From the NCBI GenBank assembly GCA_025526935.1, contig JAHLKD010000023.1, positions 1-64,000 on the forward strand: a DNA stretch of 64,000 bases, given 5' to 3'. Shown here in pieces: positions 55,992 to 62,850 of this stretch. Position 1 is the first letter of the stretch; every line of letters begins with the position of its first letter. The DNA comes from Cladochytrium replicatum. Its lineage: Eukaryota; Chytridiomycota; Chytridiomycetes; Cladochytriales; Cladochytriaceae. The translations under genes and the position numbers were made by a program. The notes under the pieces are model-generated. The model saw only the letters and a program-made list of their open reading frames with translations. It had not been told where the DNA came from and did no database searches.

Positions 55992-57958
55992 ATGAAGAAA
56001 GAAGATCGTCTTTTTTAGAGCAGTGACGAGAAATTTCTTGGGGTTTACTTTTGCAAATTTTTTTGTGATGAGTTGGATGATTTCTTCTTTTTTGCCCTTC
56101 TTTTATCCTTGTGTTTTGGAGAGCTTCTTTAATCTTGTTCCCAATGTTTTTGTGGAATACAGCAGGTGTGGTACTCCCTACTTATTCTCTTTTTGCGTCT
56201 GTTCGTTGTGCAATCTGAGGCATTTGAGTTTCTATTGTTTGTTGCGGTTGGAGTGAGATTGCTGACATATTTAGAATTTGTATTGAGGTCCACATTCGTG
56301 TTCGCTAATTGTGTGCATATCTTTCCCAAATGCTAGAGGCCTTGCACTTTTGCTTTGAGCATGCGTCGTTGGATTGGAGGGAGAAAGAAATATAGAAAAG
56401 TTTACACAAGAACAGATTCCTGAAGTTCTCAACAACCCATGCTTCCCACCGTTCCAAAACTGCTGCAATAAAAGCTTTTAGGCCTGCTCTAAGCAAATGA
56501 TGAGTTCTTCCCTAGCTAAAACAGTGTCAGACTCTCTGACCTTGATTGGTGGTATCTTACAGGTTCGTTCTTTATCTCCAAAGACACACTGCTTTCATCG
56601 AATTCTCCATCTTCTTCCAACATGCTAATCAAGCTTTGTTGCCTGCAAACATCACCAAACTTGCAATTCACTGCTTACACTTTTTCAAAACAATTAGCAC
56701 TCTGCCAATTGCATGTCTTTTCATTCTCCCGAGAGGTAGTGATCACAGCAACTCAAATACAACTGCAAGAAAAGAAAATCCATCATTATTTTGCTGCCCC
56801 TGAATTACAAATTTGGTTCTGATCTCTCAAATGTGTCAAAGCCACCACTAGTTGGTTTTCTTAAAAACGTAGGTTCTCTATTTTTGGAATGGCCAACAAA
56901 CGCCGACAAACTTCAAGATACGACCGCAACGGCTGTTGCCCTGCAAAAGAACGTGCACATCTTCGATCTCCAGGCGGAGCTTTCGTCTCCATGTTCTTCC
57001 AAACTACCTCTCGATATCCGCTCGAATCTGTCGATCATGGCACACCCTGATTTCCTCCACAGACTCGCTCTGGAAACCCCCACGTCCCAGCTGTTTCTTC
57101 ATTCCAACCAGGCGGAGGGGATGCCGCCACGTCACTTCCCCTGCCCGAATTGAGATCCAGCAACCCAACGCACTGCGGCGACGCATCTAAGCCCAAGGAC
57201 GGAATTGCCGACCATGCCTGCATGTACGTAATTCAGACTCGCGCTATAGCTACTCGTCGCCACAAACTTGCGCTTCCTCACATCAGCGTCTATGATCCGA
57301 CTCCTCACTGTTCCATCACCTCGACACAAGCTCCTTGCCGTGACGAACCAGGAGCATTCTCGTATTTACCAAAGTTGGTGTGGCTGGTGTGGCCCAGCAG
57401 GACACTTGACGAACAAATTGTTGAAGAAATTGGTGGCTGGTGTAATGTTATTGTGGCTAACTTTGTTTGATCTCCGCAATTTCATGTGAAACGTCTTTTG
57501 GCTTGTCTTGATCATTATTTGGCTTGCTATTTGTTTCTGTTTGCAGTTCGGATCGATTGAATGTTTTCTGGTGATCTGTTATAAAAGGGCAAGTGGGTCT
57601 TGGGAAATACATCATCACAAAGGGGGCGTATTTCACTGGTCTCTTCAAACTCTCACGAGCCCCAATCACAACATTATCACTCGTCCACTCCCACACGAAT
57701 TCAGTGCACCAGCCGCAGAACAGATATCTGTGGCGCTATCAATGATGAAGATACGGGCAAAATAAAAGGATACGAAATTAATTCCAGATCGCAATCCTAG
57801 TTTTGGTTTTCATAACTAAACGAAACATAGCGGCATGTCGAGAGGCGCTCAAACCGACCAACAGAAGGCGAAAGAAATGTTGCAAGAATTTGCAAAATAG
57901 GACGAAAAGTTAAGAATCTTCGAAAAATCCACTCCGCCGGGATGGATGCACATTAAAC
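55992..57958. other. Intergenic, boundary of the right accessory block
   Basis: 2 kb. Frame 56791-57153 reads somewhat protein-like (HIFDLQAEL, HPDFLHRLALE) but ends inside the inverted repeat and is not recognised. The segment 57120-57250 is the left arm of that repeat. Confidence 0.4.
57120..57250. repeat. Left arm of a ~130-bp inverted repeat
   Basis: Matches the reverse complement of 62719-62850 at roughly 90% identity by eye, including the block GATGCCGCCACGTCACTTCC at one end and GTAATTCAGACTCGCG near the other. The arms are about 5.5 kb apart and enclose the decayed gene block. Confidence 0.8.
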
Positions 57959-59640: not shown

Positions 59641-59899
59641 AGAAGCATCCTGAAGAAAGCTGTCCCATGCATAAACAATGAACAACATAGCATTCACCGA
59701 ATTTCTCTCAATTGTAACTGGCAGAAGTATTCTTGCCATCAATGCGGGATACATCAACGGTAAGATAGTCAATCTCACTCTTGAATCCTTCATGCAGATT
59801 CTGAGAAATAGAGTCGAAAAACATACTCTTCCAAAATTTTTTTCAGAGGCCAATGTCCATTAAAGCAGTGGCCCGCTAGTTCGAGTTTTGGCATAGCAG

Positions 59900-60180
59900 G
59901 CAGCAAACTCAGCACGTAATGTTGACTGGCAATTCGGTGTGCACAAGTACGGTGTCATTTTGAGGGCTGACTGCTGTGCCAATCGCTGATTCCATCTTGG
60001 CAGTCATGGCCGTCTTGTCCTTCAGGTTGAGCAACTTCTTTGAATGTCTTCATTTGAGAGGCCGTTTCGTGTGTGGAATGACGATCAGTGATGCGATTCT
60101 GAGACGGAGGCAGGATCATTTCTGACAGATCACAATCCGGATTGTACACTACACTAGCATTGAACATGTTTTCAGCTGAA
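59900..60180 (-). pseudogene. Duplicated relic of the NLR first exon
   Basis: The stretch 59916-60060 aligns with 62450-62600, the 5' end of the TIR-NLR relic, on the same strand (shared local text such as GGCCGTCTTG/GGCCGTCTCG, AATGTCTTCATTT/AATGGCTTCATTT, CGCTGATTCC). Start codon and frame are lost in parts. It shows a second, more decayed copy of the same gene type about 2.5 kb away. Confidence 0.55.
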
Positions 60181-60662
60181 GCTCTAATTATTCTTGCCTA
60201 GAAGATGAAGACGACGTCTTATGTTGATGTTAGTTTTGGGGAGAGTGTGAGAGTGCATGCATGTGATGCATGCATGTGGTTTGTGTTTTGTGTAAATGTG
60301 TATGTGTTGAGGTGTTATCTTGTATTCCATGTTAGTAGAACATGAACCCAAAGCCTCAAATGGGCACCTTAAAAAAGAATATGTGTTGAGGTATTCATGT
60401 ATGGTTTATGCTTTTGGGAGCCAGTGTGCCACCAGATACGTCTGGACTCTACACACCCTAAAGGAGAACAACAGTCACACATATCACACTTGTATCTGTA
60501 ACCAACTGTTCGTTTCCTGTCTGTTCCTAACGTTCAGAATGGAAAAAAGCTTCATCACATAGAACTATATTGTGGATAGTCACAAACAATAAACAGATGG
60601 GGAAAGACAAAGCATAACCTCAAGAAAGTTCATAGTGACCACAACACACCATTCCACAAAGT
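60181..60662. other. Intergenic between NLR relics
   Basis: About 480 bp; includes TG-rich sequence (GTGTGAGAGTGCATGCATG). No gene. Confidence 0.4.
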
Positions 60663-62598
60663 TTAACTAGACACATCACTCAGAAACTTAAGCAATGCTT
60701 CTATATGTGGATGATCTGGTGGAAGGCATTTCAAATATATCTGCAGTGCTTCATCTGCACACCTTTGCATTCCTTTCATGTCTACTATTTCGTATAGAGA
60801 AGCTACACTGCTGTCTTTCCATGAATGCAGCAGCTTGCTTGGCTGCAAGAGGAACCCCATCAATGTGTTCAAGAAGCTTGTGGAGAGCAGCAATCTCATT
60901 CTGACTTGAAATGAGGTACTGATATTTCTTCCTCAATCGCTGCATCAAGAATTGGTGAGATACATCACTTGACCAAGTTTCAACTTGAAAATATTTTTGA
61001 CTAGCGGATCAACCCACTTCCTCATCTTCACTTCCAAACTGCTATTGGATCGAGAAAAGGACATCTCCTCTCAATATCGCAGAACCTAAAACTTGATCAA
61101 GCACTGATTCATCATCAACATTGTCAAGGATAAGTAGGAAGCAATGAATCTTCGACAGAACCGAACTACATCTTCAGGAGCAATAGTTTCAAAGGTTGTC
61201 AGGTGAAAGTGTGAGCTAGCATAACCACGCAGAGCAGATATTGCAGTTGCAGCTGTGTTGCATGGAATCCAAAAAATTGACTCATAAGACCTTCCATGCT
61301 GTTTAGCATACTTGAGTGCAATGCTTGATTTGCCCATGCCGCCTTGTGCAACCAGAATAGCTGCACCACCATTAACTAGTTGCATCTGAACATCTGACAA
61401 TATATTGCTTCGTCCAACAAAATGCACTGGAGGCTCTGGCAATATGCTCAAATTATCTAGTGGGAGTAATAATTAGTTGGTACACTATTAATTAGCAAGA
61501 AGCAAACCTGATGCAACCTCCGACAGAGGTCTCACGAAGTCAATTACATTGTACGCAACCTCATACAGCTTTCCTTCAGTTGGAGTAAGATGAATGCAGT
61601 TGTTTTGAAAAAGCCTTGATATTATAGTGAAACAAAGAGTTTTGCCTGACCTGCTCTGATTGATAACAAATGCATCTGGAGAGAAGACACTGACAAGCTG
61701 ATCATTTGAGAATGACTGAAGTACTGGATCAAGCTTTGGAAGTTTGCTGAATGGAACAAAATTCCCGTCTCCGTCAATTGTGTCTAGGAGCACAGGACAC
61801 AGGCGAACATTGGGTGAATTTTCCGCAAGTTCAATCCCCTTTTCAATCTCTATCAGTACATTATCTTCCTTGCTGTGATTTTTCAAATAGATCAGTACAT
61901 TATACAACCTCCGCGGTTGCAACATACCCAGCAAGAAACATTCTGGTTCATTGTCGTGAAAGATTCGGCGCTGAGAAGGTAAACGATGACCAGGCTCTGC
62001 TGTAAGCCATTGATGAATCCAGTTCTGGGCATCATTAAGACATTTCTGATCCCAGAAAACGCTCATTTTGTTGCCCAAGCGCCGCTTCCCAACTTTCTCC
62101 AAGTACGGCACCAAGGTCTTCACAAGGTTGCCTTCGTTCTCGCGACGATACGAGACGAAAATATCATGACTGGCCGTCCGATGCTCTTTGCATATCCATT
62201 TAGTCGTCGTAGGAGGTACAGGTTCTGGCAAGCGGTAACGATGAATTGGCGATCTATGCGTTTATGTGATTAGTAAAATAAGCATGACAAGGGAATGCAA
62301 CTTACCTCGCGCACTCGCCATTCGACAAAAACTCGAGACTTAGACATTACAGCGTTGGCAACATCGCTATTGTCCAAAGTGGACAGCTTTTCACCAGCGG
62401 TGTTGATAAGAAAGTGCGGCGAATGTCCATCGAAGCGGCGGCAAAGTCACTGAAAGTGATGTCGAGTGGCAATTCCAACTGCACGAGCACGGTGCCATTG
62501 GTAAGAGGGCTGAGAGATTGCACTGAGATTATCGCTGATTCCTTCTTAGCTGTCTTGGCCGTCTCGTCCTTCGTGTTGAACAGCTTGAATGGCTTCAT
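60663..62598 (-). pseudogene. TIR-NB-ARC-TPR (NLR-like) gene, degenerate
   Basis: Domain order of a NOD-like receptor. Exon 1 (62598 to about 62307) encodes a beta-rich N-terminal module (TVLVQLELPLDITFSDF, then LINTAGEKLSTLDNSDVAN). After an intron a TIR domain follows: HDIFVSYRRENEG, MSVFWDQKCLNDAQNW, SLVIVYLLSAESF, DNVLIEIEKGIELAE, RLCPVLLD. NB-ARC then shows HFVGRSNILSDVQ, Walker A VAQGGMGKSSIALKYAKQ, Walker B CFLLILDNVDDESVLDQ and the GLPL-type mot HIDGVPLAAKQAAAFM. Only one TPR-like repeat remains (ADEALQIYLKCLPPDHPHI) before the stop. Frame changes are needed near 62435, 62012, 61150, 61048 and 60990, and most TPRs are deleted. In intact relatives TIR would act as an NADase or signalling domain. 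Confidence 0.8.
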
Positions 62599-62718: not shown

Positions 62719-62850
62719 ATCTATGGCGCGAGTCTGAATTACGTGCATGTAGGTATGATCGGGAATTCCATTGTTGGGCTTAGTTGCGTCGCCCCGGTGC
62801 GTTGAGTTGCTGGATCTCAATTCGGGCAGGGGAAGTGACGTGGCGGCATC
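62719..62850. repeat. Right arm of the ~130-bp inverted repeat
   Basis: Reverse complement of 57120-57250. It lies just upstream of the NLR relic. Open frames crossing either arm are repeat-encoded. Confidence 0.8.

What the first reader, a model, noticed from the sequence alone, without database searches (positions are those of the whole stretch)
60663..62598. Fungal TIR-NB-ARC-TPR NLR-like gene
TIR fused to NB-ARC and TPR is the plan of plant, animal and bacterial immune receptors but is rare in characterised fungi. All hallmark motifs can be found in order, so this lineage evidently has, or had, TIR-type NLRs. An extra beta-rich module sits before the TIR.
Basis: partly seen in the sequence, partly recalled or inferred. 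Interest (0 to 1): 0.8.

Follow-up and report, generated by a model that had tools for sequence, protein, structure and literature searches.

The report
Decayed fungal TIR-type immune receptor gene
The locus is a broken copy of a fungal sensor gene that joins a TIR domain to an NB-ARC switch and repeats, and the same genome carries intact sister genes, so this little-studied kind of immune-type receptor appears to be kept in use in a flagellated fungus.

Summary
On the minus strand at 62598-60663 lie, in order, remnants of an N-terminal module, a TIR domain, an NB-ARC switch and the C-terminal cap of a TPR array. The frame breaks in all three domains, and 752 residues (end of NB-ARC, every TPR unit) are missing. 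The same 50.5 Mb genome holds 28 family loci by my grouping, this one included. I spliced four intact genes (1361, 1319, 1358, 1062 aa) with the same three introns. Of three proteins scanned, NB-ARC passes the Pfam cut-off in three, TPR in two, TIR_2 in one (29.0, 27.8, 23.1 against 28). Profile alignment places the E of DNVLIE at the catalytic TIR position. At deep divergence TIR has the lowest dN/dS (0.15-0.16) of three regions measured. TPR units are up to 95% identical within a gene. The N-terminal module matches no Pfam family. Chitin synthases, HET and IFT57 support a flagellated fungus. A second family, TIR - NACHT-like - WD40, is present. TIR-NLRs were mentioned for Chytridiomycota and other fungi before, so this is a new variant of a known kind.

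The parts
62306..62598 (-). Remnant of exon 1: N-terminal module (ATG at 62598; MKPFKLFNTKDETAK...), split over two frames near 62430
   Evidence: tblastn of the intact paralog, residues 6-58 at 62586-62428 and 67-110 from 62437
62254..62305 (-). Intron 1 (GTAAGT...TAG, 52 nt)
   Evidence: read by eye; the same intron is 52-62 nt in four intact paralogs
61928..62253 (-). Exon 2: first half of the TIR domain (HDIFVSYRR... VFWDQKCLNDAQNW...), frame-shifted in its second part
   Evidence: tblastn, two frames
61873..61927 (-).
   Evidence: by eye; pattern match; 52-61 nt in four intact paralogs
61508..61872 (-). Exon 3: second half of the TIR (KEDNVLIEIEKGIELA...PVLLD) and the linker to NB-ARC
   Evidence: one frame, 90% identical to C103A
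61848..61850 (-). Codon of the Glu (VLI-E-IE) that aligns with the catalytic TIR Glu
   Evidence: profile-profile alignment of the paralogs; coordinate counted by hand
61457..61507 (-). Intron 3 (GTTTGC...TAG, 51 nt)
   Evidence: by eye; 51-55 nt in four intact paralogs
60796..61456 (-). Exon 4, first part: NB-ARC remnant with QGGMGKSS, LLILDNVDDE and GVPLAAKQ motifs in several frames
   Evidence: the P-loop frame alone gives AAA_16 E 0.033, below cut-off
60663..60794 (-). Exon 4, end: C-terminal cap behind the TPR array (YEIVDMKGMQRCADEALQIY...FLSDVSS, stop)
   Evidence: 86% identical to C103A residues 1319-1361
59847..60037 (-). Second, more decayed remnant of the same N-terminal module, downstream of the gene

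Best explanation
The window holds a dead member of a multi-copy family of NLR-type (STAND) receptors in a flagellated fungus. Proposed working of the intact members: the C-terminal array of similar TPR units binds a non-self or modified-self ligand; binding lets the NB-ARC ATPase exchange nucleotide and oligomerise; oligomerisation brings the TIR domains together; the TIRs then cleave NAD+ (using the Glu of DNVLIE) or make a nucleotide signal, leading to cell death or restriction of a parasite or foreign partner. The N-terminal module would act as a docking or regulatory domain. Array length and groove residues would diversify by repeat exchange, creating new specificities and also dead copies such as this one. 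Shown by computation here: architecture, intact copies, purifying selection, repeat similarity, which repeat positions vary. Inferred: ligand binding, oligomerisation, NADase activity, biological role.
For: Order of remnants in the window. Four intact spliced genes with shared intron positions. Pfam on three spliced proteins: NB-ARC 33.8, 35.4 and 46.1 bits (cut-off 23.5); TPR_10 and TPR_12 above cut-off in 2 of 3; TIR_2 27.8, 29.0 and 23.1 (cut-off 28). TIR against a profile of eight TIRs: hhalign probability 93.9, E 1.5e-7 for this single comparison, Glu aligned. dN/dS against the most distant intact copy: 0.15-0.16 in TIR, 0.19-0.20 in NB-ARC, 0.30-0.35 in the N-module; the TPR part was not measured. 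TPR units 94.8% identical within C103A against 78.2-87.2% to the other three genes. Mean summed entropy at the seven TPR groove positions 2.07 against 1.09 over all 43 positions, permutation p 0.04 (positions from PMC1261162, passages). Three TPR units match kinesin light chain 1 at E 4.3e-25 and kinesin light chain 2 (3edt) at 1e-14; 3EDT is the template used for a P. anserina TPR NLR in PMC4986451 (passages).
Against: No expression or biochemical data. Only 1 of 3 TIRs passes the Pfam cut-off. A TIR profile search of the PDB gave nothing convincing: best E 0.54 to an ARF exchange factor (unrelated), then 0.71 to 7uwg, listed as 'Molecular chaperone Tir', which I recall as a bacterial TIR. 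MAFFT aligned a different Glu (of KED) with the catalytic column. In the groove test the most variable unit position (15, TPR 31 in my hand-made register) and the third (11, TPR 27) are not among the seven groove positions, and groove position 33 does not vary. The recurrence of variable positions is significant in 1 of 3 gene pairs. Homogenisation is not universal: the C103C units (3 comparisons) are 82.9% alike, less than C103C against C103A (87.2%). Close pairs show weak constraint, up to dN/dS 0.79 in the N-module.
Confidence: 0.66

Rival explanations
1. NLR-like receptor whose TIR is a non-enzymatic assembly adaptor that recruits other TIR proteins, as in animal Toll signalling.
For: The genome holds many other TIR exons, some in short proteins that could be partners. 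The W of the canonical WCxxE motif (recalled) is absent and the loop before the Glu is longer than in the other TIRs.
Against: The candidate catalytic Glu is invariant in 4 of 4 aligned paralogs, and TIR has the lowest dN/dS of three regions at deep divergence.
Confidence: 0.2
2. A STAND ATPase with a housekeeping or developmental role (as in MalT-type regulators or kinesin-light-chain-like scaffolds); repeat similarity is only replication slippage.
For: The prokaryotic NB-ARC relatives found are 24-29% identical; two of three were opened and are regulator-type proteins without TIR. TPR units resemble kinesin light chain. The groove test is weak (p 0.04) and two of the three most variable positions lie outside the groove list.
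Against: TIR fusion, 28 loci of which many are broken, and more variation at groove positions than average fit recognition better than housekeeping.
Confidence: 0.1
3. Contamination or a recent transfer from a bacterium or a plant.
For: TIR and NB-ARC-TPR genes occur in bacteria; fungal TIRs are nearly absent from the data sets used in PMC13142454 (passages).
Against: Introns; copies on many contigs; contig C76 carries a family member and a chitin synthase, and C21, C26 and C45 carry family members and HET domains; the one prokaryote scan, by two short peptide patterns, found 3 distant NB-ARC relatives only. No plant genome was searched.
Confidence: 0.04

Closest known systems
HET-E / HNWD and NB-ARC-TPR NLRs of Podospora anserina
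   Same: N-terminal effector, STAND switch, C-terminal repeats with high internal conservation and variable sites on the binding face (PMC4986451, section 13 and passages)
   Different: Here a TIR stands in place of HET or SesB-like, an unnamed module precedes it, and the host appears to be a flagellated fungus
TIR-NLRs of Chytridiomycota, mentioned in one sentence of PMC9815663 with four references
   Same: TIR in NLRs of the same broad kind of fungus (passage)
   Different: I could not see the cited 2020 chapter; the passage gives no architecture, N-module or repeat behaviour
[quoted passage not shown]
   Same: TIR or TIR-like effector on a fungal NLR (passages)
   Different: No sequences were compared; the passages name neither this N-module nor TPR arrays for them
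Plant TIR-NBS-LRR receptors
   Same: TIR followed by NB-ARC (recalled, and PMC4986451 passage)
   Different: TPR units instead of LRR; extra N-terminal module
Bacterial NB-ARC-TPR proteins (loci L077, L078)
   Same: NB-ARC-type switch; TPR-like tail judged by eye
   Different: 27-29% identity, no TIR, regulator-type fusions
SARM1 / C. elegans tir-1
   Same: TIR NAD hydrolase; best PDB match (E 0.0032) of another TIR of this genome
   Different: No NB-ARC (recalled)

Membership tests
TIR domain (Pfam TIR_2) | Whole-protein score above the curated cut-off | tested here: inconclusive
   Spliced paralogs 29.0, 27.8, 23.1 against 28: 1 of 3 passes; window frame 17.2; profile-profile probability 93.9 to other TIRs
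TIR NADase | Catalytic Glu at the start of helix alpha-C | tested here: inconclusive
   Glu of DNVLIE aligned with the invariant TIR Glu by profiles, invariant in 4 of 4 paralogs, kept in the window; but MAFFT chose the Glu of KED
TIR NADase | NAD+ cleavage | not testable with these tools
   needs protein
NB-ARC (Pfam PF00931) | Score above cut-off; P-loop and hhhhDD-like motif | tested here: met
   3 of 3 spliced proteins, 33.8-46.1 bits against 23.5; GGMGKSS and YLLILDNVDDES invariant in 4 of 4
NLR / STAND receptor | Effector - NB switch - superstructure-forming repeats in one protein | tested here: met
   Four intact spliced genes; not met by the window copy, which lacks the repeats
NLR / STAND receptor | Ligand-induced oligomerisation | not testable with these tools
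   needs protein
Fungal NLRs with highly internally conserved repeats | Repeats over 85% identical over at least 100 aa (PMC4986451) | tested here: inconclusive
   Mean pairwise identity C103A 94.8% and C45A 85.4% reach it; C21E 81.4% and C103C 82.9% do not: 2 of 4. My measure, not the T-reks method of that paper
Fungal NLRs with highly internally conserved repeats | Repeat number polymorphism and positive selection between strains | not tested
   One genome only; the four paralogs have 4 to 12 pattern-matched units
HET domain | Match to PF06985 | tested here: not met
   HET is not among the 24, 19 and 11 families matched by three spliced proteins at E up to 1; HET exists elsewhere in the genome (19 matches)

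The most novel reading that the evidence does not exclude
A flagellated fungus runs a TIR-based non-self recognition system with two receptor families, [unnamed N-terminal module]-TIR-NB-ARC-TPR and TIR-NACHT-like-WD40, with homogenised, exchangeable sensor repeats. They would be TIR counterparts of the HET-containing allorecognition NLRs of other fungi, suggesting that enzymatic TIR-NLR recognition was in place early in fungal evolution, and that the N-terminal module is a new signalling domain.
Probability: 0.45. Interest if true: 0.8.

Novelty: new variant of a known kind. Interest (0 to 1): 0.6.

Why it matters
A 2026 preprint surveying eukaryotic TIRs found almost no fungal ones in its data set (which it calls poor in fungi), all from Rhizoclosmatium globosum, a chytrid, and none in the InterPro TIR clan, while noting that a very small number had been reported (PMC13142454, passages). 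Here one fungal genome gives 71 exon-level TIR_2 matches, 62 marked over the cut-off, six of these only with neighbours in the frame, and 28 loci of one NLR family by my grouping. HET domains of fungal allorecognition receptors have been proposed as remote TIR relatives whose enzymatic activity is still to be shown (PMC10197012, passages). A genome with TIR-NLRs and HET domains side by side makes that link testable, and the intact copies give concrete proteins for assays.

Tried and rejected
Reading the window frame as an intact gene: rejected, frames change in three domains and the TPR array is absent. Naming the N-terminal module: 0 of 9 members match any Pfam family at E up to 10, and the PDB search gave 4 matches, best E 1, all partial and of unrelated molecules; 'beta-rich' or 'ubiquitin-like' remains a guess from the sequence pattern. 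A bacterial source: one scan of genome contigs with the NB-ARC alignment (two short peptide patterns) found 65 candidate stretches and 3 relatives at 24-29% identity; I opened two of the three (L077, L078) and neither has a TIR. Naming the organism by 18S rRNA failed for machine reasons; the species stays unknown. dN/dS of the window copy in two blocks (72 and 90 codons) ranges from about 0.14 to 1.2 depending on block and paralog, so the age of its death is not resolved. The MAFFT alignment that put the KED Glu in the catalytic column was followed by the profile alignment; both are reported.

Full report
What is at the locus. The window is bases 1-64000 of contig C23 of a 50.5 Mb assembly in 198 contigs. 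On the minus strand, from an ATG at 62598 to a stop at 60663, lie pieces of one ancestral gene. An intact paralog on contig C103 (C103A) aligns to the window in order: residues 6-58 and 67-110 (N-terminal module) in two frames, 118 onward (TIR) with a frame change and an intron, NB-ARC to residue 566 in alternating frames with stops, then residues 1319-1361 directly after. Residues 567-1318 are absent. The copy is therefore a pseudogene, with the end of NB-ARC and the whole TPR array gone.

The family. Searches of the genome with the window's TIR, N-module and NB-ARC pieces gave 64, 28 and 46 exon-level matches. With the NB-ARC of a divergent copy (C184) there were 51 matches, which I group by eye into 28 loci, the window included, plus 2 weak ones. 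I examined 21 stretches that I held with members or pieces; in 6 of 21 each of four exon queries (the fourth ending before the TPR units) is covered by one uninterrupted hit. Of the 19 stretches with a hit to the first TIR exon, 18 also have the N-module. Four genes were read end to end as open frames after removal of three introns of 51-62 nt: C103A 1361 aa, C45A 1319 aa, C21E 1358 aa and C103C 1062 aa. A near-identical inverted twin of C45A on the same contig carries a stop in the TPR array. C184 is open into the TPR part but ends after roughly three to four units. One locus (C90:145k) has NB-ARC-TPR without a detected TIR or N-module in the stretch held. Most of the 21 stretches are interrupted or incomplete, so the window copy is one of several dead ones.

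Domains. Pfam on three spliced proteins (C103A, C21E, C184; each cut after the first TPR units) gave NB-ARC above cut-off in 3 of 3, TPR_10 and TPR_12 above cut-off in 2 of 3, and TIR_2 at 27.8, 29.0 and 23.1 bits against a cut-off of 28, so 1 of 3 passes; DUF7779, behind NB-ARC, is below its cut-off in all three. A profile of the TIR part (4 sequences) against a profile of eight other TIRs (seven from this genome and the tir-1 fragment printed) aligned over 90 columns with probability 93.9 and E 1.5e-7 for that one comparison; DNVLIE lay on DNCKFE, placing the first Glu of IEIE at the invariant TIR Glu. A plain MAFFT alignment had used the Glu of KED instead, and a PDB search with the TIR profile gave no convincing hit (best E 0.54, unrelated). 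The N-terminal module (about 110 aa) matches no Pfam family (0 of 9 members, E up to 10) and nothing in the PDB below E 1.

Evolution. Against the most distant intact copy (C21E), dN/dS is 0.15-0.16 in TIR, 0.19-0.20 in NB-ARC and 0.30-0.35 in the N-module, with dS 0.7-1.2. Among close copies it is higher: TIR 0.24-0.39, NB-ARC 0.38-0.59, N-module 0.48-0.79. The TPR part was not measured. TPR units are 43 aa; leaving out the last unit of each gene, mean pairwise identity within a gene is 94.8, 85.4, 81.4 and 82.9% (C103A, C45A, C21E, C103C; 45, 36, 55 and 3 comparisons), and between genes 73.3-87.2%. C103C does not show homogenisation. Entropy summed over four genes is highest at unit positions 15, 39, 11, 40 and 33. 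The seven variable groove positions of PMC1261162 (passages) have mean 2.07 against 1.09 overall, p 0.04 by 20,000 permutations, in a register that I assigned by hand. Against this: positions 15 and 11 (TPR 31 and 27) are not in that list, TPR 33 does not vary, and the ranks of variable positions agree significantly in only 1 of 3 gene pairs. In NLRs of other fungi most TPRs are 42 aa, 21.2% of TPR arrays are highly conserved internally, and in a P. anserina NB-ARC-TPR gene selected and variable sites lie on the concave face (PMC4986451, section 13 and passages).

Host. The genome has 22 exon matches to chitin synthase PF01644 (0 of 14 control genomes), 19 to HET (0 of 14) and matches to IFT57, a flagellar transport protein, over its cut-off (controls: 3 of 14 ring, 0 of 14 over the cut-off). 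Contig C76 carries a family member and a chitin synthase; C21, C26 and C45 carry family members and HET domains. A flagellated (chytrid-like) fungus is the simplest reading; the species is not known, and three rRNA searches did not complete.

A second TIR receptor family. Among the 71 TIR_2 matches (62 marked over the cut-off) a group on contigs such as C61, C63 and C80 is different. I read two members. The C61 frame of 1349 aa has NPHP3_N (an NTPase domain, NACHT-like in my reading) at 94.8 bits and ten WD40 stretches. TIR_2 is not among the 25 best of 49 families shown there; the TIR comes from the genome search (C61:140538-140822, 32.8 bits, at the start of this frame). The C80 frame of 2327 aa contains runs of N, so its openness is not certain. 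The WD40 units look very alike by eye; I did not measure them. The plan is that of HET-E with a TIR in place of HET.

Comparison with what is known. Dyrka 2014 found no NLR hits in chytrids (passages). Wojciechowski 2022 states that TIR was reported in NLRs of plants, bacteria and Chytridiomycota, and describes TIR-like effectors in Pezizomycotina (passages; reference list parts 1 and 3 of 4); the 2020 chapter it cites I could not see, and another cited paper, PMC7075850, holds one passage on fungi that only says TIRs occur there. [quoted passage not shown] A 2026 preprint found almost no fungal TIRs (passages). The listings of searches (12 of 46 papers listed) show, by title and start of abstract, no paper on this architecture in a chytrid; they cover only the held open-access library, and I read none of the papers whole. 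I therefore call it a new variant of a known kind.

Mechanism and confidence. Architecture, intact copies and constraint are shown by computation. Sensing by TPR, NB-ARC-driven assembly and NAD+ cleavage by TIR are inferred from the families. I put 0.66 on a TIR-NLR recognition receptor that acts through an enzymatic TIR.

Noticed in passing
G000 contigs C61:136842-140888 (L084, L087) and C80:12343-19323 (L085, L086): A second receptor family, TIR - NACHT-like (NPHP3_N) - WD40, the plan of HET-E with TIR in place of HET; WD40 units look very alike by eye.
   Followed up: partly
window 59847-60037 (-): A second, more decayed remnant of the same N-terminal module lies just downstream of the gene.
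   Followed up: partly
G000 C103:72176-72916 and C45:316056-316785: A stretch like a DNA repair metallo-beta-lactamase (DRMBL, 64.2 bits for the C103 one) ending in KQTTLFQFFKGADRT lies upstream of two family members, as if copied with them.
   Followed up: partly
G000 C45:257-261k and C45:312-316k: Two near-identical inverted copies about 55 kb apart (1 difference in the first 800 aa); one carries a stop codon in the TPR array.
   Followed up: partly
L008 (G000 C98:189144-192461): A TIR exon lies between stretches with Vint (Hint) and VIT domains, an unusual neighbourhood.
   Followed up: no
L001, L002 (G000 C62, C99): TIR frames followed, by eye, by a hydrophobic stretch like a membrane helix and a Gly/Ser-rich stretch.
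   Followed up: no
window 57120-57249 and 62721-62850: A 130-nt inverted repeat, 90% complementary, lies on either side of the region.
   Followed up: no
window 60074-60660: The 3' flank of the dead copy is 92% identical to the stretch directly behind C103A (60435-60660) and 86% to one farther behind it in inverted order (60074-60423).
   Followed up: no
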